Virus record (IMG/VR): IMGVR_UViG_3300021962_000046
Coordinates: 1 to 64,000 of that record
Source: a virus
Strand: one strand, 5' to 3'
DNA length: 64,000 nucleotides
Part shown: positions 16,101-56,667 of the stretch, one piece after another
Numbering within the stretch: position 1 is the first letter of the stretch
Layout of the letters: the number at the start of each line of letters is the position of its first letter
The notes under the pieces: model-generated
What the model was told of the DNA's origin: nothing
Seen by the model: the letters and a program-made list of their open reading frames with translations, nothing else
The model's database searches: none
Program-made: the position numbers and the translations under genes

Positions 16101-19100
16101 ATACTAGAACTTGATGCAAGTAATTCTGCAAGTTATCCAGGTTATGGAGCTTATTGGAAAGATGTTTCAGGAAGCAGACAACTTGCATTGCTTGTAAACA
16201 GTCCATCATTTGACACAACCTCAAAATCTTTCTTGCTTGATGGAAGCACACAATACATTAAGTTAACAAACTCATCCTTGTATAACTTTTCTGGAAATCA
16301 GTCATTTACATTGCTGGTTTATGGCAAAGTAAATGAAACAGGATTGGATAGCGGTATCATAACAATGCTAAACGAAGGCGTTGGTTATGAATATGCATTA
16401 AATTTGGACTACTCTGGTAAGTTGTTTGGAATTAGAAATGACGCATACCAAATACCAGCTACAACATCAAAAATAGATTTTACAGAAAAGCATCTTTTTG
16501 GTATTGTTTATGATGGAGTAAACAAAAGATTACAAATCTATATCGATGGAATACCAGCTAGTGAAAAAGTTTATTCTGACACAATATTGCCAGACTTACA
16601 AGACCTATTAATAGGTGCATACAAGCAGAACAGCATAATTTCAGGATTTTTATCATCAAGAATAAGTTATGTTTCAGCATATAATAGAAATTTATCTACA
16701 GATGAAATCAAACAATGTTATGTTTCAATTTATTCAAAATTCATAAATGCATATCCAACCACAACAACTCCAGCACCTTCTTTGGTTACAACAAATCTAC
16801 AAGCATTATTCAATGCAAAAGATTATTCAGGTGGAATATATTGGGTAGATAGTATTTCAAACATACAGGCCAGAATTGTAAATTCTGCGACTTATGATAG
16901 TATAAACAAATGTTTTATATTAAATGGAATAAATCAATATTTTGATTTGGGAACTGCTTCACAATTTAATGTTACGGGATCAGCCCCATACACTATACAA
17001 GTTTATTTGAACTTCAACGATATATCTGGGTATCAAACTTTATTTTCTAGCTGGAATACTGGAATAGCTGGCAAACTGCTTTTTATAAAAGATCAAGATA
17101 ATTTTGTAAGATCTAGTAGAAATAGCATTAGTGTAGGCGTATCGCCAACAACAGTAACCTCACAAACTATTTATCTCATAACGCTAACATATGATGGAAC
17201 AGCGATGAGAATATATTTGAACAACACATCTGGAAATGCAATAAATGATCAATTAACAGCTTTAGCAGCAACACCATTTTTAATTGGAGCAAATCTTTCC
17301 TCTAATATTACTACAAATTTCTTAAATGCAAACATATACTCAACAATAGTATACAACAGAGCATTATCTCCTTCCGAAATATCACAAAATTTAAACTACT
17401 TAACAACAATCTACAATCAAACAACAACAACAACATCAACAACACCACAGCCAGAAACAAATGTGTTCTATTTAAATTCTGACATATCTTGTGATGGTGG
17501 AAATGTTAATTTCTGCCCAATCAACATTTCAGGTTATTTGCAAACTTTGGGCGCAACAGAAACACAATTTTTACCTCCAGCATCTGGAAGTACTGGTATT
17601 AGTGCAAACATGGAAGCAGTTGACACTTCTTCTTCCTTTGATTCTTCTCTAAAACCATTGCCACCAAACAGTAGCATTGGAAATGCATACAGAACAGACC
17701 GAGCTTTAAACGGAACATTTTCAGCTGGTTCTTGGAACTTATCAATAAGCTTGCAAAGCACAAGAAGAAAAGGTTCTGGTCATATTGCCACAAGGATATT
17801 CAAATCATCCAATCCAGATGGAACTAATGCAACAGAATTAACAGCAACGACACTAAATGGAAATACATCAGATTTCACTTTGTCTACAATCTCAACATCT
17901 AAAGTTACATGGAACACATCTTCCATAACATTAAACAATGAATACTTGTTTTTCACAGTTGCTTGGGTAATAGATGGATATGCAACAACGACAACAACAA
18001 CACCAATTCCAAGCTTTGTATTATCTGGCTGCGAACTATTGCTTGATGCAAGCGATGCAGATTCTTATCCGGGCTTTGGAAGTGTCTGGTATGACATAAG
18101 CGGAAATCAAAGAGATGCAACAGTAATAAATAGTCCAACATTTAGTGCTGTAAACAAAAGCTTCACACTTAATGGAACAAATCAATATTTCAATCTTGGA
18201 AATAATTCTGCATTTTATAAGAATGGAACTGCGCCTTTTTCTTTATCGATATATTGCGACATAAATTCTACTGCTAATTATAAATCTATAATTTCAAGAC
18301 AAAACAACAATGTTCTTGGAGATTATGAACTATATGTTAATTCATCGAATACTGTTTTTGGAAAAAGAGATGTGTCACCATATGAGACATCTGGTGTTTC
18401 AAATCTAACACCAAATACAAAATATCTAATAACTATGGTTTATGATGGAACATTTTTAAAAGTATTCATAAATGATAAATCTGGAAATGAAATAAATTCT
18501 GGTTCTGTTGTAACTAATTCGCCAAATTTAAATCTACTGGTTGGTGCCAATTACACATCTGATGTTCTAGCTAATTTCTTTGGTGGCAACATCTACGCAG
18601 TAATGTTTTATAATAAAGCACTTGCATTTGAAGAAATCCAAAGAAACATTACTGCTGCAAGATTCAGATTTGGTTTTAGTCCAGAACCTTCCACAACTAC
18701 AACACCATACCCACAAAATTACAATTTGGTATTGTACCCAGATCCAGTTTGCAATATAAATTATAGATTTAAATATGGTTATGTCTCTACTGCTCCATAT
18801 GATTTTTATGGTCCAGAATCTGGATGGTCATTAGCAGCAGGGAATCAGTTAAACACATATGCTTTTTTATGTTTTGGTTTTCCAGTAACAAATGCATATA
18901 CCGCTACAAGCAATGCAATAACTCAAATTTTATATCCAAATAATTATCCTTCGTCTGCACCAAACCCATTAATTGGAATAGGATCTGTGCCAGCTAGTTG
19001 CACAAACTTAGAAATAAACAATCAACCATTAGGAAGAAATGGTTATCCTATAAATCTTAGAAATTTACAAAACCCCAATCAAATTATAAAACTACAAAAC

Positions 19101-21443
19101 TGTGATCCATCTACATTTACAAATGCAGTTCTAAAAGATTGTTTGTATCAAGTTTGGTACAATGCAATTACAAGAAATATAACAAACGGAACGCTTGTAT
19201 TAACTACTAGCAATTCAAGCACAAGATTGAAGGAAGAAGATTATTACCTTTACAATGATTTAGTTCAAAAAGGCTGGACTATAACTTTAGATGCTATTCC
19301 AACCACCACTACCACCACATCAACTACTACCACAGAGGAACCATCTCAGACATTAACAATAAGAAATACAGTTTATTCAAGCGTAGAATCACCAATATTC
19401 AATACCAATGTTGAAATACCACAACAAGGACCACCTTCTGCCTATAAGGGTGTTTTGTATACATATGCAATTCAAAGAAGTGGAGTACCACCTGTTACAA
19501 CCTCAACAACTCCAGCACCGCTTCAAGCAAATATAACAGCTGCTGTTTTAATTCAAAGCGTCACAACCACATCAAGCACAACATCATCGACAGCTGGACC
19601 GGGAACCAGATTTATTTCCATAAAAGTTTCTGATATAGCAACAATAAATTATATTAACTTTGGCGATGGTACAATTATTCGCAATCCATCATCTGAATTC
19701 GCAATAACATATGAATATAAGAACGATGGCCTCTATGATCTTTCAATTTCTGCAAACACTTCTGATATTGAAATAGATTGTAGAAACATAACATACTTGA
19801 CAGTTGAAGATTATATTTCTGGAACACCTGTATCAAGGATTGTTTTAACAAATTCAGCTATTCAATTTGCCGATTTGGATCACGCATTACAAACTTCTTA
19901 TGTTGATTTAAGAAACAATAATATGAATTCAAATTCTGTGACTAGTGCCTTGCAAGCAATAGCTGTAAGTCCAGAATTTAGCGGTTATGTTAATTTGACA
20001 GGGAATTCTATTCCAACAGCCGAAGGCCTAACAGCAGCACAAAATCTGGTCAACAATGGATGGACAGTTCTTATAGACGGTGGTGTTGTGACAACAACAC
20101 CAAGACCTCAATCTGATCATGCCATTTTGTGGGATACCGAAAGTAATCTAACTTGGGATTTCAATTCCTATATCTTATGGGATGAAATAACAACCACAAC
20201 GAATTTATCAAATATAGATTCAACATCTAATGGAACAAATCCACTTCCACAAATGTCTGGCTCTCCAGCTTTCGGAATCGAATTTAATGTTCCTCCTGCG
20301 TTTATACCAAATTATTATGGATATTATAAGTATTTGACATTGAAACTAACAGCAAATAGCAATATAAATGCTGGAACTACAATATCAATACAGGTAAGTA
20401 ATGTTCAAAATCCAGGAAATTCTACTGAGAACTTCATACTTGCTAATGCTTATATTGGTGAAAATATAAATTCTGGAGATGTTTTTGTTGCAAACTTTGA
20501 TATAAGCAGCTTGTATCCTTCATCTGGAACTAATTATATTTGGTTTAAAACAACAAGTGATACAATTAATGTTATCCCACAACTAAACTGGTGTTATAAT
20601 AGCTTCATACTTCCAACAGGAAGTTGGATTTTCAATCAATACTACAATGTTTCAACAGGAAATGGAATATTTTCAATAAGTGTAAACAACTATATTCCAA
20701 CAACTCTTCCTCCACCTACTACAACTCCACTACCAAACTCTTTGTTGTATACTTCAAATGGAATTCTTGAATATGTAAGTTCTGGACCTTTGTTGTGGTA
20801 TAATGTAAATATAACAACAACTAGTACCACTACAACAACAAGTACTACTACAACAACAAGTACTACTACAACAACAAGTACTACTACAACAACAAGTACT
20901 ACTACAACAGAAGCACCAACTAGTACTACTACAACAACTCCACCAATTAGAACAGTACTTGACAGTTCACTTTTGACAAATGATGCTGAAGCACCGATAA
21001 ACAATCCTTCTCAAGTTTATGGCGTAAGCTTTGACACTCTTGGCTTGCAGTTTAGCACAAATCCTCTGCAAGTATTGATATTAAGTTTACAAAACGATAC
21101 AGTTGCAGAAATTACTACATATTCTTTGGATGTAAGCACAAGTTCTACTGGCCCTTGGACAACAATTCAAGGTCAAATATTACAACCTTGGTTGCCAAGT
21201 ATTGACAGAGATATTTACTTTGATGTTAGTGGATTTACAATATCTCAAAATACAAATACCTTGTATTTTAAGTATGTTTCGGGGCAACCAGCAGCATCAT
21301 TTAACATATCGAATTCTGGTAGTTCTACGAGTATTTGGCAAGATACTGGTTATGTTGGAATAGTAGGGACTGGTATTTATAGACTTACAGCATATTCAAA
21401 TATTTCAACAACTACAAGTACAACAACTACTGCAACACCTTAG
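4194..21443 (+). CDS. Giant modular fibre/adhesin protein (5749 residues)
   Basis: One uninterrupted frame. SD GAGGGA (4182-4187) lies within the end of the previous gene. Residues 1-60 are the second half of a putative Ig domain (LNIDPTNGLLTGTP). LamG/concanavalin-like modules follow at about 64-320, 350-633, 635-918, 1170-1390, 3023-3250, 3965-4189, 4200-4410 and 4606-4833, recognisable by L-x-x-W-x-D near the start and VYDG or similar later. PKD-like WGDG modules lie at about 920-1000, 1645-1720 and 5133-5190, followed by leucine-rich-like stretches. Repeated beta-sandwich modules (FSTDN-type) fill 2320-3016, 3265-3963 and 5583-5738. At least fifteen Thr/Ser/Pro linkers separate them. There is no signal peptide or membrane segment. 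A long tail fibre or whisker binding glycans is the likely role. It ends in TAG. No enzyme motif was seen. Confidence 0.85.
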   Translation: MAVTDYTWNIPVGKPTWLNIDPTNGLLTGTPSSSDTGFYYFTVTATNRQTGQVLTRELSVGVSQPVYPYNLGLLLNWYDNTSLSKLASGDPVSLWVDKGLRPTNLGQTNISQRPAAFIIPNGGKAVQFESVNMENLIGLNTVNQTIYQKCTVAFWYNTSSTSSSNLFGLNNQDLVLQDSFGTFQKENNSVVFDRYKTNGNIQIASVSTTPASNSWQFLSAVISKNLNGNYDVSIYAYDKLTSTMNLIGQNPNSFTLAANSNVTELVYRQAVTMGAAYNGNQDVVGFFDGYISSSFIYGSELSQSQLLTLAQNSDPTQPVSTTTSTTPVPAYFYVLNSVEPVPTTTPAPPPFNPNSLGNLVNWYDANDLSVYQDGASVSVWNDKATALPPGTQTQNRLNLTLSTSSYAGNVPPVKRTDGKPYLDFTANNTGFLVSNASYNVTNFTYKTYAAWIWIDSPEEGTSSSFRNAFGYVNTDGSKTNFCSLGLQPTNNARPGFLKYNANSTSVAPFFQGSTSVGPQGTWCFVAITLDDSNLSNRLPTIYYDINGIVQQRRFDTLFVVDSTPTNCSVGIGGSLISNGSGGFNFLKWAGKISSCFFYASQTQSQGMLSLSQLQELRDRTYPGINDPKVPTPAPFNPATLGTLTTWLDQNYLFGCYPGYKVLQLQNKGSLGGYAYSYDYYNPSNPYGTSALTVDQQDYYPALSFNGTSDGYTFNQTQSISQSQAYTVAGWVFTPPVSTTTSTTSTTSTTSSTSSTSSTSSTSSTSSTTPQPLNRSFFGSYSSINEIPYGIGLNKQTAISETYYQTGNPQTISSNTPINTAYGTWSFVAITRQNGTGSSTVLYEDISGIVSQVGSAVISQTSANYTNVKNWIGKYSPQNLGAKYFNGYVGSQFVYSQALNIGQLQILRDSTNPGGPPNEGQFSIDWVATAGQTKTIQTSTGLLTSINWGDGTTTFTDGITTSFTHTYINAGTYTVNLNCSSIVAPNTSLTISNQNVIRVNTTKIPSVIKELDLSQNNITSVSFYGTSINKIKLGTNPLTSLNTSILPNITLLDLSNCNLITSLDLTQNTELLTLNLNGCTLLDNITNYQTLTNLTFLDISGTQLNYNNLTYFTNLQIFYGQNAKISGDFVANNMSSLTTINIANTIPTTTTTPQPTTSTTTSTSSTSTTIPPFFTTNCRILLDGTTYSGSGTTWNSSVGSLTGTLVNSPTYDSTQKGFILNGVNQYINLGNDSSIGFSGNNPFTIQAFIKVTQTGIGNQAIISRWNENVGGSYLLYKNTFEDLKANRNPDYTAQSPYSIPFNEQILVTMVYDGNLTRIYIDDNSGVPITDISSTAFAGNTLVGSYLVNSVMSGFFQGEIYSVAVYGQPLTIDQIRQNYRACIARYQIPPEPTTTTSTTSTSTSSTSSTTSSTTSSTTPIPVGITSINVSGSTALTTIDLTSNSISLFDGTGLVNLSSLNVSYNPSFSQSGLVTYNYPSLLTLNGTGCNFTTFDARTTTGNLSYLRTLILDRNYSLTTILADNNPNLLSISASYCDLSNLDISNSSSLVVNNLTTVVANYNPNLSSINLTNVFKLQNLSLVGCNLNTSEISNIVVKIYNGVQLYGTRNGILSVNNQLEWAPPDQGTLTTINILKSNYSWSVITDEYAPFFIWKSVAAGETKGFTIQGKISNIRWGDGTTSAGPFKDQTITHTYTSAINNAVVLFNIDYPVVPDDPTNRLTEFLATVENNGVGISDINNLQNYVQTIQLDNSYITKWDKTIESLQILILRNYKGYLTNVEALNHTFLTTLELSASDTAVGSALTNVNITNLNSLIVLNVQNASGLAGTGSGTSPFSKITGFADNTSIINLNINNTGIQVNDLRTINKANLVNYYAQGNNCSGEFNATNTIVEVVDISNNNFTSAIFDGCVNIFEVYLINNALNRTEIDNVLTTIRNLATTNSIYEGFIDLRSQANNQTHGYTSTFGYIQDLGYRLEWGVLIDYDPDWVITITHSKNSNSAIFAANSISWFTQQVGIPLVFEGSFEGQLNDLAFIGTGPYVTKFYPGSSLTDLGYDSTLESIIINNFNLFEIEGLPSTVTSLNLNNNLIENINLEECTNLQDLSINVNQIQNIDLSANTSLTSLQIAENNLLNLDIAANTLLTSINCSYNTNLITLNGFVFNRMIYIDFSGTKLTSYIPIDCTGATDLTYLGAREINISSTLNFSGLQNLVAVDVTYNMLGDIYFEDCSSIKYILASYNSLSIVSINSILAQAVINEQTNNITFGIINLQNQNPLSYPTGQGIVDKQILVSSPFNWTVNTDSAPVAPTTSTTTTSSTTSTTIAPSIAVLTNFGKNAPLTNQYAITPGSTTVFSIDYDNSGCTVGYFNFIQFIMYAGTLPSGSDPYGTYLQFSFDGGVTYQTIYGLANTSPGPWISTTATVTFNLSGIKVPVGQRSIYMKWADGPTGSRTVYLNCTSTLFQYSAQASWAETGYLNLPSTPIYQLVAQSTTFTRPTTTTTTPAPTTTTSTTFAPTGTVVTYDSLAAQPGNGSNIPTFNTDAYPSYPYLLDIKLNPGIYSSANMRVRISFKAWITAYIGQFAGQIKLNFSTDNVNFTYIESSGYPAWWADEDVYTGSWYFTPNFQPTVYQDFVIYFKQSLENTNRYLLVNVYSVGNIWWTQKNNSWDRQWVMKLENDAATVQPRATTTSTTTTTSTTTTSTTTTPIPSLIVLNSSNYANAGSTTISNENYVFGISYITNYTWYNTPLNYIEILLTNESGTAIQELQLDIGNSIEGPFTRVSGIPTTFWDDNTTAFVRFDLSFIRASGKELVVDNIYFKPVSGQPLFALNYTTVANAATNIWLDSGTFNLPNTLSAIYKLVSTYPYIPQNPIQVLRPNPNFTPTSIDGKGVIFNANGTANGPISNIILLLRNITPNETFYSVTIEMSTDGVNYLPFLGLPTTLWTYLSYAYVSFDIRKLGIIPNGYENTTIYFRYSNTTQLIAISQADPTLGSSYLWTDVGTVNSSGKLSYIIETSYANIYTYPYYSDNSSTPTVWLLDASNIVSYSGSGNTWYNLAPNDGTNTSVTLQNSPQYFVSEKCFNLNGTNQSFVFPSQNFIIGARQPYTAQVLFSLNSYPASGQSFTIFTNENINSSPAGQFRIWIDSSRQIKGNRDTAYPWLLTNTPAISLNTPYLATFVYDGTFMQLYVNDYPVGSQARSDTNSYSGSFTPVIGARYQGSSLVENLNGKIYQAAFYRRALSQSDIVQSWKVVTQNFNILPTTTTTTSTTTTPVPYAQYVLDNSIVIADGVATNNTNAEISSAQTSAYGIQYSNYGCVVGSLRTLSLYINQPNSNPYNWPDGYYTNVTLQFSTNGINYTPITGRTENGQELFGVQKVTFDLSSLSYSSPNGTIYFKYYNETRTLYWVTTNIGIDASLVWGEAGQVLTPSGYKGIYQLSANSTDFDRPKEPTTTTTTTTTTTTLPPGNYIVLDNLWKTQGNANAYPLNPDGTAVELRINPNDYSSGDVDMQITLNMFVNGTCNPSGNIVLEFSFDNVNWIPVEGTTYSGIWNGPSDIKAVTFDISTSYVIPRNATNPIYVRAPINTYTGSCIPYVMFNNEASGTTQYWDQSKYNEGYMLTKIVADASMIQPVAQATNDAPPALSFSNATTTPYPSLVLNSTQATSNGTLPLTATSNKYTITYSVPFSYYGTNLNKLKILLRNNMSSVKNSTNMYFSTDNTNYILVTGIPQSTWLSGTSVLVEFDLSNLVVLQQATNNIYFYPASTDLNTAVDYSNGSGKATLIFTDLQPTIPGTNISFIYNLTAGQPINTTKILTLNNTKYSNTGQIGYIQLDTPKTITFTSTSSTGAISNLVLTLQNNSNRNLYGVGLDFSTNNGASYSTLIGYPEATWKNGEVKDIIFDISSLNIVPTDGIQKSIIVRNNTTYQSNTDISWKLSSTGNASYIWTDNSVSYTVPGGTGYALYSISTSNISSPPVVNNGKILELDASNSASYPGYGAYWKDVSGSRQLALLVNSPSFDTTSKSFLLDGSTQYIKLTNSSLYNFSGNQSFTLLVYGKVNETGLDSGIITMLNEGVGYEYALNLDYSGKLFGIRNDAYQIPATTSKIDFTEKHLFGIVYDGVNKRLQIYIDGIPASEKVYSDTILPDLQDLLIGAYKQNSIISGFLSSRISYVSAYNRNLSTDEIKQCYVSIYSKFINAYPTTTTPAPSLVTTNLQALFNAKDYSGGIYWVDSISNIQARIVNSATYDSINKCFILNGINQYFDLGTASQFNVTGSAPYTIQVYLNFNDISGYQTLFSSWNTGIAGKLLFIKDQDNFVRSSRNSISVGVSPTTVTSQTIYLITLTYDGTAMRIYLNNTSGNAINDQLTALAATPFLIGANLSSNITTNFLNANIYSTIVYNRALSPSEISQNLNYLTTIYNQTTTTTSTTPQPETNVFYLNSDISCDGGNVNFCPINISGYLQTLGATETQFLPPASGSTGISANMEAVDTSSSFDSSLKPLPPNSSIGNAYRTDRALNGTFSAGSWNLSISLQSTRRKGSGHIATRIFKSSNPDGTNATELTATTLNGNTSDFTLSTISTSKVTWNTSSITLNNEYLFFTVAWVIDGYATTTTTTPIPSFVLSGCELLLDASDADSYPGFGSVWYDISGNQRDATVINSPTFSAVNKSFTLNGTNQYFNLGNNSAFYKNGTAPFSLSIYCDINSTANYKSIISRQNNNVLGDYELYVNSSNTVFGKRDVSPYETSGVSNLTPNTKYLITMVYDGTFLKVFINDKSGNEINSGSVVTNSPNLNLLVGANYTSDVLANFFGGNIYAVMFYNKALAFEEIQRNITAARFRFGFSPEPSTTTTPYPQNYNLVLYPDPVCNINYRFKYGYVSTAPYDFYGPESGWSLAAGNQLNTYAFLCFGFPVTNAYTATSNAITQILYPNNYPSSAPNPLIGIGSVPASCTNLEINNQPLGRNGYPINLRNLQNPNQIIKLQNCDPSTFTNAVLKDCLYQVWYNAITRNITNGTLVLTTSNSSTRLKEEDYYLYNDLVQKGWTITLDAIPTTTTTTSTTTTEEPSQTLTIRNTVYSSVESPIFNTNVEIPQQGPPSAYKGVLYTYAIQRSGVPPVTTSTTPAPLQANITAAVLIQSVTTTSSTTSSTAGPGTRFISIKVSDIATINYINFGDGTIIRNPSSEFAITYEYKNDGLYDLSISANTSDIEIDCRNITYLTVEDYISGTPVSRIVLTNSAIQFADLDHALQTSYVDLRNNNMNSNSVTSALQAIAVSPEFSGYVNLTGNSIPTAEGLTAAQNLVNNGWTVLIDGGVVTTTPRPQSDHAILWDTESNLTWDFNSYILWDEITTTTNLSNIDSTSNGTNPLPQMSGSPAFGIEFNVPPAFIPNYYGYYKYLTLKLTANSNINAGTTISIQVSNVQNPGNSTENFILANAYIGENINSGDVFVANFDISSLYPSSGTNYIWFKTTSDTINVIPQLNWCYNSFILPTGSWIFNQYYNVSTGNGIFSISVNNYIPTTLPPPTTTPLPNSLLYTSNGILEYVSSGPLLWYNVNITTTSTTTTTSTTTTTSTTTTTSTTTTTSTTTTEAPTSTTTTTPPIRTVLDSSLLTNDAEAPINNPSQVYGVSFDTLGLQFSTNPLQVLILSLQNDTVAEITTYSLDVSTSSTGPWTTIQGQILQPWLPSIDRDIYFDVSGFTISQNTNTLYFKYVSGQPAASFNISNSGSSTSIWQDTGYVGIVGTGIYRLTAYSNISTTTSTTTTATP
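6438..6486 (+). repeat. 9-bp tandem repeat encoding Ser/Thr linker
   Basis: About five copies of a TTCTTCCAC unit lie inside the giant fibre gene and encode an STS-type linker between its second and third LamG-like units. Codon choice (TCT TCC ACT) differs from the ACA/AGT-based linkers elsewhere. Confidence 0.85.
20829..20912 (+). repeat. 18-bp tandem repeat encoding (TTTTTS)n linker
   Basis: Four near-identical copies of TACTACTACAACAACAAG occur near the 3' end of the giant fibre gene. They encode a TTTTTS repeat just before the final beta-sandwich module. Identical codons in each copy suggest recent expansion by slippage or recombination. Confidence 0.85.
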
Positions 21444-41430: not shown

Positions 41431-43737
41431 TTAACCAAGCATTTCATCAATTTCATCATCAGAATCACCAGCATCAAAAGCTTCTACATCTGGTGATTCC
41501 GTTGCATCTATGGCACTCATAAATGGTTCCAAATATGCAAGAACTTCTTCTTTTGTATTGGCATCAATCAATTTAGGACAATCAATCAATACCTGAATTG
41601 GAACATCATTTCTTTCAATAGAAGACTTAAATTTATATTCTTCTTCTGTTGATGCGTATTCTGGCTTGACTTTAAAGTTGCCAGCACCAGAGGCAATTAT
41701 TCTTTCAGCATCAAGCAAAGCACCCAGCAATCCTCCCAGAGGATTCATGCCTTTTTCAAAAAACAAAGGAATGTTTTCTATCTCAATAAATGGTCTCACA
41801 TTCCTGTTTTTCTTGTTGCTAATCTTTATGTTGATGCCGATGCTTTTCTTCTTAGCCAAACCCGGAACCTTCTGTTCAATCTTCTTTTGGGTTTGTGTTC
41901 GGAAGCGAAGAGACGCATAGAATGGAAGTGCATTTCCACCGCCTGCGGTTGTTTCTGGAGAATTATGAACAATTGCACCATCAACTACATAAGTGTGATT
42001 ATCCTCGATTGCAAGATCAAATTTAACCTTAGATTTAGTTGCTGGCTTCTCATGAATAGCAAGAACCATTGATTTTGCTACATCATAAAGCACAGAATCT
42101 TCATCCACTTCTTGAATTTCATAATTGAATTTACCATGAAAATCTGGATGAATCTTATATTGCATAGAATCTGGCACAAATTGAGCAATCATGCTATGCA
42201 ATTTATAAGTATTCTCAGCATCAAATATAAAACCTTTCTTGTCAATTTTAGCTTTCAAACCAAATTTCTTTTCAAAAATAGGAAGCATGTTTTTCATGTT
42301 TTTGAATTTTACACAACACAAACGAGCCTTGCCCTTGCCCCATTTTGCATAATTTCCACCATAAGTGCCATCATCCAAATACCAAATTGCAAGAGCAAGC
42401 AATCCAATCTTTTCAAATGCAATTTGTGGGATCACACAATCTCTGTTTTCCTGACCCCATTTATATTTTGATTTTCTAAAACCGAATTTGTTCAATTCAG
42501 GCATTGGGATTGTATCAAATCCAACTCTGCGCTCTTCAGAGTAAGAATAACCAACCCAAGGCGACAAAATAGATTCCTTCCATAGACAATATTCTGCTTG
42601 TTTTAACCCATGATTGATTCTTAATTGGGTTGCAGAATAGTTCTTTTTGCCAGTCCTTAGACTGCCATCTCCCAAAATTGAACCAATAACAACTTGTTCT
42701 TGTTCTTGAGTCAAATACTTAGGCTGAACTTGTGCCAGAGTATCACCGATTTTAATTTCACCGGCTGGTTTTTCAATAATTTTATCATCCTCCCACACAA
42801 ACATCATGTGGTTAGGTGTTGCTCCAAATTGTGATACACCATTTCCCCAAGGCTTTGTAGCAGTAAATTGCAAAAATTTCTGTCCTTCTTGCAAATTACC
42901 GTTATTGTGCCAAGCAATAACTTTCTTGGGTTCTACAACACCAGTTTTGGTATTATAAGATAATACTTCAACTGGAATCTTTTGATTGACAATTTTGCCA
43001 ATTTTCATGGTACTACCATCTGCCAACATTACCCTGCTTGAATAATGAAAGCACCCATACATAATTCCAATTTTTTCCCTAATTTGGTTCATAATAACAA
43101 CAGAAACATTATTTTCTTCCATTACTGTATTTAATTTACGAAGCTCTTTAGAACAGATCTTGGCTCTTTCTCCAGGTTGCTCATTGGCACCCACGATTTT
43201 TTTAAACTGTTCTTTGGTATATCCTTCAGGAAGATCAACTTCCCTGAACTCTCTGGAGCAAGGACTGACAGAGATAGAATCATAAACAATAACAATAGGC
43301 TTATCAGCATACTTTTTATTTGAACGAATATGCTCGATTGCCCTATACATCACATGAAAACATTTCTCCAAAGTTTCAGGTGTGTATCTGACGATCTTGT
43401 TCAAATCGGCATGGCTTGCTTTTTTAATAAAATCTTTATTAATAGCATTTTCACTATCAATAAGAATTGGAACACCACCAAGCTTTTGGCATCCAAACAG
43501 CAAGTTTGTTCCCAGTAAAGATTTAGAAGAAGCACTAGGCCCATAAATCTCAGTCAGCCTTCCACCCGGAACGCCACCATTTATGAATCTTCCTGAACAA
43601 CAATAATTAATAGCTAAATTTCCTGTATCAATAAAATACTTGCTTTCTTTTTCACCCTCTCCAACAACCTCACCGCCTGTTTCATTGGCTAAGGTTGAAA
43701 AAATATCATCATCAGTTTCTTTCTTTTGACGAGCCAT
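41431..43737 (-). CDS. uvsX/recA-like: RecA/UvsX-type recombinase interrupted by an intein
   Basis: The product is 768 residues, or 404 after intein removal. Start 43737 is preceded by AGAGGTG; nine more in-frame codons upstream lack a ribosome site. The Walker A motif GPSASSKS (66-73) departs from GPESSGKT but resembles phage UvsX. VIVYDSISVSP is the Walker B strand and NQIREKIGIMYG leads to loop 2. The extein resumes as SPETTAGGGNALPFYASLRF, the conserved L2/ssDNA-binding region. The C-terminus is acidic (DSDDEIDEMLG), as in RecA. Its role is strand exchange in recombination-dependent replication, with the gp32-like and UvsY-like proteins encoded nearby. Confidence 0.93.
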   Translation of the reverse strand: MARQKKETDDDIFSTLANETGGEVVGEGEKESKYFIDTGNLAINYCCSGRFINGGVPGGRLTEIYGPSASSKSLLGTNLLFGCQKLGGVPILIDSENAINKDFIKKASHADLNKIVRYTPETLEKCFHVMYRAIEHIRSNKKYADKPIVIVYDSISVSPCSREFREVDLPEGYTKEQFKKIVGANEQPGERAKICSKELRKLNTVMEENNVSVVIMNQIREKIGIMYGCFHYSSRVMLADGSTMKIGKIVNQKIPVEVLSYNTKTGVVEPKKVIAWHNNGNLQEGQKFLQFTATKPWGNGVSQFGATPNHMMFVWEDDKIIEKPAGEIKIGDTLAQVQPKYLTQEQEQVVIGSILGDGSLRTGKKNYSATQLRINHGLKQAEYCLWKESILSPWVGYSYSEERRVGFDTIPMPELNKFGFRKSKYKWGQENRDCVIPQIAFEKIGLLALAIWYLDDGTYGGNYAKWGKGKARLCCVKFKNMKNMLPIFEKKFGLKAKIDKKGFIFDAENTYKLHSMIAQFVPDSMQYKIHPDFHGKFNYEIQEVDEDSVLYDVAKSMVLAIHEKPATKSKVKFDLAIEDNHTYVVDGAIVHNSPETTAGGGNALPFYASLRFRTQTQKKIEQKVPGLAKKKSIGINIKISNKKNRNVRPFIEIENIPLFFEKGMNPLGGLLGALLDAERIIASGAGNFKVKPEYASTEEEYKFKSSIERNDVPIQVLIDCPKLIDANTKEEVLAYLEPFMSAIDATESPDVEAFDAGDSDDEIDEMLG
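41962..43053 (-). other. Intein with LAGLIDADG homing endonuclease in RecA
   Basis: This segment encodes 364 residues from Cys (CFHYSSRVMLADG, block A) to the terminal His-Asn (VVDGAIVHN, block G), with Ser as the +1 extein residue. Block B shows T-P-N-H (GATPNHMM). IGSILGDGSL and LALAIWYLDDGTYGG are the two LAGLIDADG motifs, so the endonuclease looks intact. Removing it restores a RecA sequence without gaps at the start of the PETT-GG loop. Confidence 0.93.
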
Positions 43738-43795
43738 AAAACACCTCTTTTGATTTGCTTGCAACCCAAATTTATAACTTAAAAATGAACACGAA

Positions 43796-48707: not shown

Positions 48708-49268
48708 TTATCCCCCATAAACCAAGTAATCGTGATCGGACAAACTAACTTGTCCACTTCTGACAGGTTTTTCTCTTGTTATCTTTTTACCAAGATTCCT
48801 CTGAGCATTCCAGATGATTTGTTTACAATATGTAAAAAATTTAGTGTCAAATATCAAACTCTTCGTTTTTTGGGGCAATTCATCTGGATTTAAATATATT
48901 AAACAAATCTTGCCCAACAAGTCTTCTTGATAATCACCAAACTTCTGCCTGTTTGCTCCATGTCGGGTTCTGTTGTGCCATAAATTTTGCAGTTCATCTA
49001 TTATCATTCTCACAACATGATTGATTTTTTTGTTTCTTAACTTCTCAAAACAAGAGTCTATGTAAACCTGCCTCTTGTAATAAGAGCCTGCACGAATAAC
49101 AGATACCATCAATTCCTGATTGAAATCATCCAGATCGAATTGATGATTGTTTGCCGAGTTCTTTCGGTTCAACTGCCAAGATGCGTAATAACACAATTGA
49201 CCAAACTTCTTATCCAACAAATTGTACTCATCTGCGTTTATTGGAAAATTCTTGTATATAGAACTCAA
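48708..49268 (-). CDS. Sigma factor-like protein (possible gp55-type late sigma)
   Basis: The product is 186 residues, overlapping the polymerase stop by four bases (ATGA). FDLDDFNQELMVSVIRAGSYY followed by the KLRNKKINHVVRMIIDEL and HNRTRHG stretches fits the helical pattern of sigma region 2 (acidic D-D-x-x-Q-E, then a basic -10-contacting helix). T4 gp55 is of the same size (185 residues) and also lacks most other sigma regions. The C-terminal end (SLSDHDYLVYGG) is short, acidic and hydrophobic, as the clamp-binding tail of gp55 is. Resemblance is by pattern, not alignment. NATAAATA boxes in the window are consistent with it. Confidence 0.5.
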   Translation of the reverse strand: MSSIYKNFPINADEYNLLDKKFGQLCYYASWQLNRKNSANNHQFDLDDFNQELMVSVIRAGSYYKRQVYIDSCFEKLRNKKINHVVRMIIDELQNLWHNRTRHGANRQKFGDYQEDLLGKICLIYLNPDELPQKTKSLIFDTKFFTYCKQIIWNAQRNLGKKITREKPVRSGQVSLSDHDYLVYGG

Positions 49269-50581
49269 TTTTTCGCCTTTCTCTTTAGTTTCTGCATTTT
49301 GTCCAAACTTTTACCAGCCATAACCGATACGGAAAGTTTTAACTCAGGTATCAATTCTGTTTGTTTTTCCAAAATACTTCTGGCAGCCATATATGCGTCT
49401 TGCATATCTTTTTGCCTGACTGCCAGACAATAACCATCATGAACGCTGTAAACAATCTGATACAAATTGCTACTCTGCTTGTATAATTTTACCAAAGATT
49501 CCAAACAAATCAAAGCAGCAGGTGATTGAATTGCAAAATTCCTTGCCTTATAAGATTCTTTTGAATCAAAAAATCTTTTTCTACCAAATTTGTCTTTTAC
49601 AAATTCATTCTTGGATGCCAAATCTTGATGCCCCTCAACATAGTCAAAACTTTTACTAAAAGTTTTTCTTACTATATCAAAATAGATTTGTGCTTGATCG
49701 AATGATATTTCTAGATTTCTGGCAAGACCGGCTGCTGTTTGTCCATATATAATCGGCAAAAATGTTTTTTTTGCTATATCTTTTGCATTTTCGCTGGCTA
49801 CATTAAACACCTTTTGAAAAATAATCTCATAAACAGAATCAGAATTATTATTGATTATATCTTGCAACACCTCATCCTCTGCAAGACAGGCAAGAACACC
49901 TACTTCCATGCTTCGATAATCAAATTGAAAAAAGATATGATCTTGATTTAACAATCTAAAATTCGACTTGTAATCACCCAAAGAATGCGGGTTGTAACAA
50001 CGCTTCATCTCACAACTACATGACAACCTGCCGTTTTCTTGACCCTCAATGTGATAGTTCGGATAAACCAATTGACCTATATTATCATCTATCAAACAAT
50101 AACTCTCTATAGCTGGAATAACTTCGCAAATAATCGGCTGAAAAACCTTCTTGTAAATGCTTATCAACACCTTGTTGGTAACCCATTCCTTAAAATGCCT
50201 TTCTTGCCTTGAAATTTCGCTTATAGACGATTCTTTTGCCAAATATGACTCGTACCACAATAAATCAAAAACATTCTTTAAAACGATGTTTTTGCCAGTC
50301 AGGCGGGTAAAGAGGGTGAATATCTGTTTCCAGTCATGTCCAATCAGAGGAATGTTCTTCTTGGATACAAAAGCTTCAAATAATTTAAGGAATAAAAACA
50401 CATTTTCGGAATGAAGATTCATTTGAACCATTTTGCCAGAAATGGTTTCTATCTTGAATTTGACGAATATCTTGGATTTGCTGGTAGAATCTATTTTCTC
50501 TGGATTCCAAGAACAAAAAATGTAACTCTCTGATTTCAATAATTCATCCAAGGATCTGCTCAAATCTTCAAGGTTGGCCAT
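49265..50581 (-). CDS. polA-like: Family A DNA polymerase, short form
   Basis: The product is 438 residues, with SD GAGGTGA. Motif A DYRSMEV (D221), motif B K267...K271...Y279-G (KDIAKKTFLPIIYG) and motif C HDG (381-383) mark the palm and fingers; NGRLSCS and QSPAA match other conserved polA segments. The residue at the E. coli Phe762 position reads as Leu275, and motif C has Gly where Glu is usual. Residues 20-120 look like a degenerate 3'-5' exonuclease domain (IGHDWKQIF, FDLLWYESYLA) without the catalytic acidic set. Shorter than Klenow-type phage enzymes (about 560-600). It leads the minus-strand replication block. Confidence 0.93.
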   Translation of the reverse strand: MANLEDLSRSLDELLKSESYIFCSWNPEKIDSTSKSKIFVKFKIETISGKMVQMNLHSENVFLFLKLFEAFVSKKNIPLIGHDWKQIFTLFTRLTGKNIVLKNVFDLLWYESYLAKESSISEISRQERHFKEWVTNKVLISIYKKVFQPIICEVIPAIESYCLIDDNIGQLVYPNYHIEGQENGRLSCSCEMKRCYNPHSLGDYKSNFRLLNQDHIFFQFDYRSMEVGVLACLAEDEVLQDIINNNSDSVYEIIFQKVFNVASENAKDIAKKTFLPIIYGQTAAGLARNLEISFDQAQIYFDIVRKTFSKSFDYVEGHQDLASKNEFVKDKFGRKRFFDSKESYKARNFAIQSPAALICLESLVKLYKQSSNLYQIVYSVHDGYCLAVRQKDMQDAYMAARSILEKQTELIPELKLSVSVMAGKSLDKMQKLKRKAKN

Positions 50582-50727
50582 CAGAAGTTCACCTCAGTTC
50601 TGTTTCCACTTAACCTAACATAGAAGCCCCAAAAAACACAAATAAGTACTGGAAATAATAATCTACAAAATTTATCTTTTATATGTCCATACCGGGGGGC
50701 GGGTCTAAGGTGGTGAAGAAAAAAAAT

Positions 50728-50754
50728 ATAATAATGACTTTTTATCATTATTAT
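50728..50754. terminator. Bidirectional intrinsic terminator
   Basis: ATAATAATGA (50728-50737) and TCATTATTAT (50745-50754) form a 10-bp stem with a 7-base loop. T-runs flank both ends (TTTTTTTT to the right; eight T's on the minus strand to the left). No gene stops here, so it would end a leftward transcript of the structured region before the polymerase gene. Confidence 0.75.
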
Positions 50755-50777
50755 GGGTTTTTTTTCGATACCACTCT

Positions 50778-51097
50778 AGATTTGAGATCAGTATTGCTAG
50801 TGATGTGCATCATTTGATGATATCCTTAGCTTTACTGAATTGTGTGTTTGGGTAACACACAGTTAACTTGTCGGTTTGAGAATCCTAACCGTACATCATG
50901 TCTCAACTTGAAAAGTTTAATTTTCAATTTGAGAACAGCCCGCCTTAATTTGGCTGATGTAGGCTCACCTAGTCTCATGCCGGTTCATTAGGTTCCCGTA
51001 TTACCTAATGGGTCTAGCAGGGTGTACCGCCCCAGCAAGGTTTATATTGCTCAAATCTCACGAATTGAACTCAGTAACTTTTCAGGCCGACAATTCG
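50778..51097 (-). ncRNA. Candidate structured RNA, multi-branched
   Basis: A closing helix AGATTTGAG (50778-50786) with CTCAAATCT (51050-51058) encloses a second helix TGCTAG/CTAGCA (50795-50800, 51014-51019) and at least five hairpins: 50841-50861, 50872-50891, 50901-50934 (13 bp, one mismatch), 50936-50956 and 50986-51010. A further 7-bp hairpin CGAATTG/CAATTCG (51061-51097) follows. The stretch 50936-51040 is about half G+C by hand count, far above the surrounding DNA. The minus strand is preferred because a terminator lies on its 3' side and a TATAAT on its 5' side. No known family was recognised. Confidence 0.6.
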
Positions 51098-51107
51098 CCT
51101 TACTAGG

Positions 51108-51135
51108 TTACAAACAAAATAATAACAATTATAAA
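51108..51135 (+). promoter_or_regulatory. Promoter for the gene at 51221, overlapping a minus-strand -10
   Basis: TTACAA (51108-51113), a 16-base spacer and TATAAA (51130-51135) on the plus strand. A perfect TATAAT is read on the minus strand at 51133-51128, suitable for the structured RNA, but its -35 is weak. Confidence 0.45.
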
Positions 51136-51220
51136 AATAAAAATCAAACTAATTGGCGAAAAGTCATAACTACCTGTATGATTTCTTTTGAGAAACATAA
51201 ACTCAAAGGAAGTAAACTAA

Positions 51221-51931
51221 ATGGAAATATTCATGAAATATGAACCAGAAATAGCGATCAATTTGAATATGACCGAAGAAGAAAGCATGGCTTACTACCT
51301 GCTCTGTTTCTACATCAATAAAACCAGAGAACTTATTCCAAATTATCGCCATCCAAGAATCACAACAAAAATAGAAAAACTTAAAACTAGCCTCGCATTT
51401 AAACACATGATGAAATTTGTTCGTGAAAAAAGAAAAAAATTCAAAGATCCAAAGTATTTGGAAATTTACATACTTGCACAAATAGTCATTATGAAAAAAC
51501 AACACGAAATGGGAAACAACGCATTAGTTGATTTTCAAATGCTACATGGTGAAGGGGCAAACAGAAGGTGGGAAATCTGGAAGAAGATGTACAGAGATAA
51601 AAATATGGTTAGTGATATTAACTATACATTCACAAAAACAAATATAGAGAATGAATTTAACAAAACCATAAATACACTCAATAAAATACTAGGTGATGAT
51701 AAAAGTTTAGAAAATTATGTTACTCATGCAAACGAAATACTAACAAACATAATTATAAAAAGAATAAGTCATATGTATGTCTACTTTTCAAAGTGGATTA
51801 AGAAACTTCCAGAAGAAATACGAGGCGAGATAAAAGACATAATCAACACAGATGCCTTGAAAACTTTTGACTTATCAGCTGTAAAAAAATGCTATGAGAA
51901 AAATTTTGAATATGAAATTAATATGTCATGA
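51221..51931 (+). CDS. Hypothetical helical protein, 236 residues
   Basis: SD AAAGGAAG lies near the base of a small hairpin (TTTGAG...CTCAAA, 51188-51208) in the leader. The protein is almost wholly helical and rich in Lys, Glu and Ile (FVREKRKKFKDPKYLEIYILAQIVIMKK). It has no recognisable domain, signal peptide or membrane segment. The end overlaps the convergent gene by 14 bases. Being the only gene driven rightward from the structured region, it may be an early gene; function unknown. Confidence 0.65.
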   Translation: MEIFMKYEPEIAINLNMTEEESMAYYLLCFYINKTRELIPNYRHPRITTKIEKLKTSLAFKHMMKFVREKRKKFKDPKYLEIYILAQIVIMKKQHEMGNNALVDFQMLHGEGANRRWEIWKKMYRDKNMVSDINYTFTKTNIENEFNKTINTLNKILGDDKSLENYVTHANEILTNIIIKRISHMYVYFSKWIKKLPEEIRGEIKDIINTDALKTFDLSAVKKCYEKNFEYEINMS

Positions 51932-55646: not shown

Positions 55647-55826
55647 ATGTTAAATGAAGAATTGGCAGAAGTAGTTCGAATGGTAACGGTACTAGACGAT
55701 AAAGTAGATAATCTAACCAACAGGCAAAAAGATCTTTTCGAAAAATTAAATAGATCAATTTATAGAACGGAAAGATTTTTAGAAAAAACGGAAACTCCAA
55801 AAGATATAGCAGCTACAAAAAACTAA
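55647..55826 (+). CDS. Small coiled-coil protein, 59 residues
   Basis: A short frame with ATG behind GGGGGT (55632-55637) at fitting distance. The product (MLNEELAEVVRMVTVLDDKV, then NLTNRQKDLFEKLN) has regular hydrophobic heptads, typical of a short coiled coil. It fills the divergent gap after the Dda-like gene, and its stop overlaps the convergent gene by four bases. Composition matches coding sequence here, but a role cannot be read. Confidence 0.6.
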   Translation: MLNEELAEVVRMVTVLDDKVDNLTNRQKDLFEKLNRSIYRTERFLEKTETPKDIAATKN

Positions 55827-56269
55827 TTCTTTCCTCGTTTTTTAGCCTGTAGATAGAATATAAAGCTATTCCTGTTTCCGGGGACAAAGCTTTTTGGTGA
55901 TTGCCTATAAGCAACCATCAATTTTGTTTCTGGGTTTTCATAAGAAATAAAATCTTTTAATCTACTTAAAACAGTTGTGATAAATTCCTTACTACCAGTA
56001 ATTCTGATGCCATCTTCTTGAATTGTTGAGCCTTTGTGATCATATTCTATTGGTTTGAAATTCAAAGGTATACTCGGTTGTACACCCTTCCAAAAAGACA
56101 TAATATCTTCTTTGCCAGCTTTCCAAGGTTTTATTTTTAACTTTGGAGATTTTGGTTTTTCCGGTTGTGCTGTTTGTGGTGATGCTGGGCTGGAAACAAC
56201 CGGATTGGTTGTTGGAACAACAGGAGCATCAACTTCATTTAATTTTTTCCATTCAGCAAAGTTTTTCAT
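55823..56269 (-). CDS. Possible virion protein with LNEVDAP N-terminus
   Basis: The product is 148 residues. KNFAEWKKLNEVDAP at the N-terminus matches FQKFLETYILNEVDAP of the divergent gene. Residues 16-45 are a Pro/Thr/Ser linker (VVPTTNPVVSSPASPQTAQP). The C-terminal 100 residues are basic with mixed strands and helices (EDGIRITGSKEFITTVLSRLKDF). T4 internal head proteins carry a similar short N-terminal targeting peptide that is cut after L/I-x-E, so a packaged protein is possible. No family was recognised. Confidence 0.65.
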   Translation of the reverse strand: MKNFAEWKKLNEVDAPVVPTTNPVVSSPASPQTAQPEKPKSPKLKIKPWKAGKEDIMSFWKGVQPSIPLNFKPIEYDHKGSTIQEDGIRITGSKEFITTVLSRLKDFISYENPETKLMVAYRQSPKSFVPGNRNSFIFYLQAKKRGKN

Positions 56270-56291
56270 GTAAATATTTATTCGTTTGATT

Positions 56292-56299
56292 GATAAATA
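56292..56299 (+). promoter_or_regulatory. Late promoter-like box GATAAATA
   Basis: NATAAATA form, 18 bases before the TTG start of the next gene and followed by GGGAG. The leader would be short. Chance occurrence is possible in such AT-rich DNA. Confidence 0.3.
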
Positions 56300-56317
56300 T
56301 TATGGGAGAATAAAAAA

Positions 56318-56632
56318 TTGATTACATTTCAAAAGTTTTTAGAAACCTACATTTTGAACGAGGTAGATGCACCACCAGCTGGTGCTGCGCCTCCACCTGA
56401 CGCAGCAGCTGGTGCTGGTGCTGCGCCTCCACCTGATCTGGGAGGAGGCTTAGGTGGAGCATTGGGAGGCGCACCACCCGGAGGGGCACCTGACTTAGGA
56501 GGTGGCTTGGGTGGAGCAGTAGGTGCTGGTGATGCTGGTGGTCAACCAAATACAAATGTCAAGATTTATAATTTCTGGGATGCCACAAAAGCACATTTTG
56601 ACAAATTCAAACCAGAGAATCAAAAAAAATAA
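56318..56632 (+). CDS. Gly/Ala/Pro-rich small protein with LNEVDAP N-terminus
   Basis: The product is 104 residues, starting with TTG at 56318 behind GGGAG. The N-terminus ITFQKFLETYILNEVDAP is shared with the divergent gene. Residues 20-76 are repeats of APPPD, LGGGLGG and GAPP type, encoded by unusually GC-rich DNA. The last 27 residues (VKIYNFWDATKAHFDKFKP) are a helical end loosely like FWKGVQPSIPLNFKP of the partner. It is probably a flexible virion or head-interior protein, which is inference. Confidence 0.65.
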   Translation: MITFQKFLETYILNEVDAPPAGAAPPPDAAAGAGAAPPPDLGGGLGGALGGAPPGGAPDLGGGLGGAVGAGDAGGQPNTNVKIYNFWDATKAHFDKFKPENQKK

Positions 56633-56667
56633 TTGAAAAAAATTTAAAGTTTTATATGATTTAATCT

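What the first reader, a model, noticed from the sequence alone, without database searches (positions are those of the whole stretch)
50778..51097. Undescribed multi-branched structured RNA (or origin) beside the DNA polymerase gene
A 9-bp long-range helix, an inner 6-bp helix, five local hairpins and a trailing 7-bp hairpin are all nested without conflict, apart from two bases shared with a competing small hairpin. The core is about half G+C by hand count in an AT-rich genome, and there is no reading frame. A bidirectional terminator lies on one side and a perfect TATAAT on the other, so the minus strand gives a complete transcription unit. It matches no RNA family I know. An origin of replication is the main alternative.
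Basis: partly seen in the sequence, partly recalled or inferred. Interest (0 to 1): 0.87.

Follow-up and report, generated by a model that had tools for sequence, protein, structure and literature searches.

The report
New pseudoknotted huge-phage RNA family
A stretch of non-coding DNA just before the DNA polymerase gene of a huge bacteriophage encodes a previously undescribed, roughly 420-letter RNA whose intricate knotted shape has been kept by evolution in at least eight related phages, while its job is still unknown.

Summary
The conserved unit runs from about 51111 to 50691.

Eight distinct homologues, the window included, lie between orf236 and pol in related huge-phage contigs. On a block alignment, 17 of 28 base pairs show changes on both sides (shuffled mean 8.1) and the covariation score is 0.487 against 0.200 (0/500 shuffles). 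G·U pairs outnumber A·C mismatches 19 to 4, which points to the minus strand.

Three long-range pairings exist. P_A and P_B cross each other, and P_C joins a hairpin loop to the 3′ tail. A promoter is present in all eight.

No Rfam family matches, and no paper was found in the held library.

Relatives without the RNA carry a primase-like gene, another protein gene or a long inverted repeat in the slot, hinting at replication. A separate trans-acting RNA is the best reading; a pol leader or origin/primer RNA cannot be excluded.

The parts
51119..51147 (-). Promoter of the RNA: -35 TTGATT (51142-51147), 17 nt, -10 TATTAT (51119-51124)
Evidence: a sigma70-like site in all 8 homologues, -10 ending 10-18 nt before H1; shuffle P 0.007-0.06 each.
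51074..51111 (-). P1, 5'-terminal helix GUAAC (51107-51111) / GUUAC (51074-51078), enclosing H1
   Evidence: Predicted in the MFE. Varies in step: GUGAUU/GAUCAU, GCUAGU/ACUGGC, GUCAAG/CUUGAC, AUGGAUU/AGUCCAU (strands chosen by inspection).
51084..51100 (-). H1 hairpin AGGC(GAAUUGUCG)GCCU
   Evidence: 8/8 paired; AGGC/GCCU, GGGU/ACCC, UGGU/ACCA, AGGU/ACCU
51049..51070 (-).
   Evidence: Complementary strands of different sequence in 8/8 homologues (by inspection); MFE folds of window, L042 and L045
50978..51037 (-). H3 domain: closing helix UGCUGG (51032-51037) / CCGGCA (50978-50983)
   Evidence: All 6 pairs show changes on both sides; swap test p = 0.0004
51016..51031 (-). H3a hairpin GGCGG/CC-u-GCU
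   Evidence: 100% paired in 6 sequences, 2 pairs with changes on both sides (AGC/GCU, GGC/GCC, GAC/GUC)
50986..51010 (-). H3b hairpin CAUUAGG/CCUAAUG, loop UAAUACGGGAA
   Evidence: 100% paired in 6 sequences, 3 pairs with changes on both sides; top helix in an unguided column scan
50877..50977 (-). P_A helix UGAGA(C) (50972-50977) / (U)UCUCA (50877-50882), 3' strand directly after the conserved GGUUARG motif (50883-50890)
   Evidence: 5 of 6 pairs with changes on both sides; swap p = 0.0001; recovered by the unguided scan
50960..50971 (-). H4 hairpin UAGG-UGAG-CCUA
   Evidence: Core GG/CC invariant; outer pairs vary and are broken in some sequences; swap test not significant
50698..50944 (-). 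P_B pseudoknot helix, strands 50937-50944 (GGCGGGCU) and 50698-50705 (GACCCGCC), crossing P_A
   Evidence: GGCAGGC/GCCUGCC, GGCGGGU/ACCCGCC, GGCUGGUU/AACCAGCC, UGCGGGUU/AACCCGUG; 3 pairs with changes on both sides; swap p = 0.002; also in the L045 MFE
50693..50998 (-). P_C loop-tail pairing: H3b loop CGGG (50995-50998) with 3' tail CCCG (50693-50696)
   Evidence: CGGG/CCCG, UGGG/CCCA (L044), CGAG/CUCG (L038, L091): 97.5% paired, slid controls at most 65%
50704..50780 (-).
   Evidence: U-tract is paired in the extended stem; P_B and P_C partners lie 3' of it; GC-richer relatives L091 and L093 have the hairpin without a U-tract
50691..50705 (-). Conserved 3' element GACCCGCCCCCCGGU (end of the conserved RNA)
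   Evidence: Conserved in the alignment; similar element in L049, L091, L093 and L113
49265..50581 (-). Family-A DNA polymerase gene (438 aa) directly downstream
   Evidence: Pfam DNA_pol_A E = 1e-28
51221..51931 (+). orf236, divergent neighbour, conserved in the relatives, predicted all-helical, no known fold match

Best explanation
The minus strand of 50691-51111 encodes a discrete structured non-coding RNA of about 420 nt, the window's member of a family found so far only in a lineage of huge phages. It is transcribed from its own sigma70-like promoter. It folds into local hairpins (P1, H1-H4) tied together by three long-range pairings: P_A and P_B cross each other, and P_C joins a hairpin loop to the 3' tail. 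Shown: conservation, covariation, strand, a predicted promoter, and position inside the replication gene block. Inferred: it acts in trans as a compact RNA, probably bound by a phage or host protein, during early replication or takeover. The site upstream of pol is one where relatives carry a primase-like or other gene instead.
For: Homologues upstream of pol in 8 distinct genomes (window included) whose polymerases are 44-51% identical to the window's. Covariation on block alignments: 90.6% of cells paired, 17 pairs with changes on both sides against 8.1 by shuffling, slid controls 47% or less; H3a/H3b; P_C. Swap tests and unguided scan. G-U 19 against A-C 4. Promoter in 8/8. L038/L040 found at E = 1.5e-5 by a model built without them. 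L091, L113 and L115, not used to define P_A and P_B, show equivalent pairings (for L113 and L115; the rest by inspection). L091, L038, L041, L053 and L103 have a plausible separate promoter just before pol. z = -9.4.
Against: No RNA-seq. No clear terminator follows the 3' element, so the 3' end is not fixed. Pol's own promoter is not convincing in the window or in five of the other seven close homologues, so read-through into pol is possible. Most homologues were found through pol or a neighbouring gene, which biases the synteny. A trans function and a protein partner are inference.
Confidence: 0.55

Rival explanations
1. It is the 5' leader of the pol operon mRNA, a cis-acting regulatory element such as autogenous control by the polymerase, an operator or an attenuator. 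The A/U hairpin with its U-tract would act as a partial terminator.
For: Always directly upstream of and co-directional with pol, about 75-110 nt from its start in clade A. Hairpin plus U-rich run in all clade A members (by inspection). No clear separate pol promoter in the window.
Against: P_B and P_C need sequence 3' of the hairpin, so the full fold cannot control termination there. L091 and L093 lack the U-tract. Several genomes have a good promoter between RNA and pol. Pol in relatives without the RNA manages without it.
Confidence: 0.25
2. It is an origin-associated RNA: the transcript stays on, or is processed at, the origin and primes or positions replication, as RNA II does in ColE1 plasmids.
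For: Lies between UvsW, pol and DnaB genes. In L064, L065 and L114 the same slot holds a gene resembling archaeo-eukaryotic primases.
Against: Several relatives encode a DnaG-like primase elsewhere. The local GC-skew minimum in three genomes is 4-5 kb away, at the gene-strand switch. No iterons or unwinding element were identified.
Confidence: 0.15
3. It is a DNA element only (origin, packaging or recombination site) whose inverted repeats merely look like RNA helices.
For: In another branch (L050, L055, L057, L067) the slot holds a long inverted repeat with internal palindromes.
Against: G-U pairs exceed A-C mismatches 19 to 4; pseudoknots with covariation; conserved promoter at a fairly fixed distance.
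Confidence: 0.03

Closest known systems
GOLLD, ROOL and OLE (large ornate RNAs; PMC12286853)
   Same: Large, highly structured non-coding RNAs of unknown function; GOLLD and ROOL are known from phages/prophages
   Different: No match to any Rfam model at gathering threshold, nor convincingly at relaxed thresholds; about 420 nt; beside pol, not tRNA genes (no tRNA in the window)
RNase P RNA
   Same: Two crossing helices with a hairpin between (order P_A5', hairpin, P_B5', P_A3', P_B3') resemble P2/P3/P4 topology (known from memory)
   Different: No Rfam match; the conserved P4 sequence (from memory) is not seen; extra 5' domain
ColE1 RNA II and other primer RNAs
   Same: Structured transcript at a replication locus
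   Different: No Rfam match; DnaG-like primase is present in several relatives; origin not shown
T4 gp43 translational operator (pol autoregulation)
   Same: RNA structure next to a phage DNA polymerase gene
   Different: Much larger and pseudoknotted; ends 75-110 nt before the start codon instead of overlapping the ribosome-binding site
IscB/IsrB omega RNA (HEARO)
   Same: Pseudoknotted RNA of a few hundred nt near one gene
   Different: No recognised nuclease gene beside it, little room for a guide, no Rfam match

Membership tests
Any Rfam 15 family (incl. GOLLD, ROOL, OLE, HEARO, RNase P, tmRNA, 6S) | Score at or above the family's gathering threshold | tested here: not met
   0 matches in the window and in the rest of its record plus part of G001; relaxed scans of the window, L042, L045, L103 and L091 give only hits far below threshold, mostly miRNA models on the A/U hairpin
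tRNA/tmRNA | ARAGORN tRNA or tmRNA fold | tested here: not met
   None in the window, the rest of its record or two related contigs
RNase P RNA | Match to the RNase P covariance models, which include the conserved P4 sequences | tested here: not met
   No Rfam hit
RNase P RNA | P2/P4-like crossing helices | tested here: met
   P_A and P_B cross; topology alone is not membership
New RNA family proposed here | P_A/P_B pseudoknot, GGUUARG before the P_A 3' strand, 3' tail pairing with the H3b loop | tested here: met
   window and 7 close homologues
Cis-regulatory pol leader | Shared transcript with pol and effect on pol expression | not testable with these tools
   Needs RNA-seq and reporter assays; promoter evidence is mixed
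Replication origin | GC-skew inflection at the element | tested here: inconclusive
   Local minimum 4-5 kb away in G000, G001 and G003, but confounded by gene strand and by fragmentary records
Replication origin | Mapped replication start | not testable with these tools
   Needs marker-frequency or nascent-strand data

The most novel reading that the evidence does not exclude
The RNA is a replication-initiation factor that takes the place of an accessory primase-polymerase. Where relatives have an AEP-type primase-like gene directly before pol, this lineage has a pseudoknotted RNA that primes or loads the polymerase.
Probability: 0.1. Interest if true: 0.92.

Novelty: categorically new. Interest (0 to 1): 0.74.

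Why it matters
A new RNA family of this size with three covarying long-range pairings is uncommon, and large phage RNAs of this complexity have few functional explanations. It sits in the replication block of a lineage that includes phages of 500 kb and more, and appears to alternate with a primase-like gene, which makes a link between a non-coding RNA and phage DNA replication testable. 'Categorically new' refers to the RNA family (no relative in Rfam 15); its function may prove to be of a familiar kind.

Tried and rejected
Known RNA families (Rfam gathering and relaxed scans) and tRNA/tmRNA were rejected. blastn against phage records gave nothing. A single-protein search with pol found no relative; two-sequence alignments were needed. 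The DNA motif search gave only known contigs plus chance hits L035 and L036. A second, gapped motif search gave known contigs plus L076 and L078-L080; L076 had only a chance-level, off-site model hit and L078-L080 had none at E <= 10. Pairing of GGRGCGG with the 3' element (a first idea) was dropped because L044 and L045 break it. A CCC/GGG pseudoknot inside H3b is invariant and was entered one column off, so it is no evidence. 'RNA replaces primase altogether' was weakened by DnaG-like genes elsewhere. orf236 as RNA-binding partner: its predicted fold matches nothing solved, and it also occurs where the RNA is absent. Genome contigs: no cellular relative of orf186.

Full report
1. What is in the window. 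The finding lies in the 640-nt non-coding gap between a family-A DNA polymerase gene (minus strand, 49265-50581; Pfam E = 1e-28) and a divergent gene of unknown function, orf236 (plus strand, 51221-51931). The block also holds a DnaB-like helicase, a UvsW-like helicase, an SSB and UvsX. The record is a 106.6-kb virus contig, probably a fragment. Its nearest annotated relative is the 595-kb huge phage LR756511.1, with which UvsW (52%), DnaB (32.5%) and pol (29%) are shared in the same order.

2. Chance. With the boundaries found below the z-score is -9.4 on the minus strand and -7.3 on the plus strand. G+C is 41% against 34.5% for the window, not one half.

3. Homologues. UvsW, pol and orf186 alignments brought in several dozen related loci. 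Eight distinct sequences including the window (L037, L038, L039, L041, L042, L044, L045) have an alignable element between orf236 and pol, although their polymerases are only 44-51% identical to the window's. A covariance model of the core, built from six of them, found L038/L040 independently at E = 1.5e-5 and L049 weakly (E = 0.16) at the syntenic place. In 16 whole records, four of them over 500 kb, it had no significant hit outside the slot. The element occurs once in the window's record.

4. Structure. The helices were first seen by eye and then counted. Because the variable loops differ in length, conserved blocks were concatenated (A8: H1, H3, P_A, H4, P_B, tail). 90.6% of cells are paired (77.2% after shuffling), 17 of 28 pairs have changes on both sides (8.1), and the covariation score is 0.487 against 0.200, reached by none of 500 shuffles. 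Slides by 1-3 columns give at most 47%. P_A: GUAGAU/AUCUAC, UGAGA/UCUCA, AAGAC/GUCUU, ACAAC/GUUGU. P_B: GGCAGGC/GCCUGCC, GGCGGGU/ACCCGCC, GGCUGGUU/AACCAGCC. H3a and H3b. P_C: CGGG/CCCG, UGGG/CCCA and CGAG/CUCG. Exchanging 5' and 3' strands between genomes lowers the pairing (P 0.0001-0.002 for H1, H3, P_A and P_B; H4 not significant). An unguided scan of a sequence-only alignment lists H3b and P_A at the top and also recovers H1 and P_B, but returns other helices as well, some probably spurious; in 60 column shuffles only one reached 3 double-change pairs in a helix. The blocks were cut by hand with knowledge of the pairing, so percentages paired are somewhat flattered; the double changes are less affected. 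Shuffles ignore relatedness.

5. Strand and ends. G-U pairs outnumber A-C mismatches 10:3 in the counted helices and 9:1 in H2 and P1, so the RNA is read from the minus strand. A sigma70-like promoter lies upstream of H1 in all eight, which puts the start near 51111-51113 in the window. P_B and P_C use bases 50691-50705, beyond the A/U-rich hairpin (50704-50780). That hairpin is therefore internal; its U-tract pairs with an A-tract in the stem, and the GC-richer relatives L091 and L093 have a hairpin without a U-tract. No clear terminator follows, so the 3' end is open.

6. The 9-bp closing helix (50778-50786 with 51050-51058) competes with a local hairpin H2 that exists in all eight with different sequences. 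The 7-bp trailing hairpin competes with H1. Neither was seen in the homologues.

7. Wider family. By inspection, L091, L113 and L115 show the same order of motifs with wholly different helix sequences: L091 P_A GGGACU/AGUCCU and P_B GCAGACU/AGUCUGC; L113 P_A GUACC/GGUAC and P_B GCGGUG/CACCGC; L115 P_A AGAACC/GGUUCU and P_B GGUGCCAUGG/CCAUGGCACC (sequences; anchored P_A of L113 and L115). L093, L107 and L049 carry parts of it. A second type (L096, L101, L103, L106, L111) has a different RNA in the slot with a covarying hairpin; whether it is homologous is not settled. L050, L055, L057 and L067 have a long inverted repeat there. L064, L065 and L114 have a gene resembling archaeo-eukaryotic primases (35.1 bits, over the cut-off, in L064's record; below the cut-off for the others). 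L002 and L016 have another 385-387 aa gene. So RNA, protein or repeat alternate at this place; the primase link is positional only, and several relatives have a DnaG-like primase elsewhere.

8. Function. A separate trans-acting RNA fits best: own promoter, a fold that includes the 3' tail, and a plausible separate pol promoter in L038, L041, L091, L103 and L053. Against it, pol promoters are not convincing in the window and five other close homologues. A pol leader is the main rival, then an origin or primer RNA. GC skew turns 4-5 kb away, where gene direction switches, in three genomes, which does not favour the origin reading but is confounded.

9. Known or new. No Rfam 15 family matches in the window or the rest of its record, or in relaxed scans of five slots. 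Three searches of the held open-access papers found no description; most subscription papers are not covered. Large ornate RNAs GOLLD, ROOL and OLE (PMC12286853) are the nearest kind in character, and long non-coding RNAs of unknown role are reported in phage K (PMC9241854), but no relationship was found.

Noticed in passing
window 41431-43764 (-): UvsX-like recombinase ORF (777 aa) carries a LAGLIDADG endonuclease-like stretch (residues 351-539) inside the recombinase domain, probably an intein.
   Followed up: no
L101, L103, L106, L111 and L096, slot upstream of pol: A second, diverged RNA type with covarying hairpin (GGACG/CGUCC, GGAUG/CAUCC, GAGUG/CACUC, GGGUG/CACCC) and GUACUCCCU-like motif; possibly homologous to the window's RNA.
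   Followed up: partly
L050, L055, L057 and L067, slot between orf236 and pol: Long imperfect inverted repeat TTGGCAC..GCTTCGTGCG / CGCACGAAGC..GTGCCAA around smaller palindromes with ACGAAGT centres.
   Followed up: no
L064 659-1948, L065 2657-3937, L114 1890-3152: Archaeo-eukaryotic primase-like gene directly upstream of pol in relatives that lack the RNA.
   Followed up: partly
window 55801-56667: Gap without long ORFs at the switch from minus- to plus-strand genes, at the local GC-skew minimum; a better candidate for an origin than the finding.
   Followed up: no
L042 3875-3890: The 3' strand of the long hairpin contains ACCTCCTTA, identical to the 16S anti-Shine-Dalgarno core; not conserved in the other members, so probably chance.
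   Followed up: partly
window 4194-21443 (+): Single open reading frame of 5749 codons.
   Followed up: no
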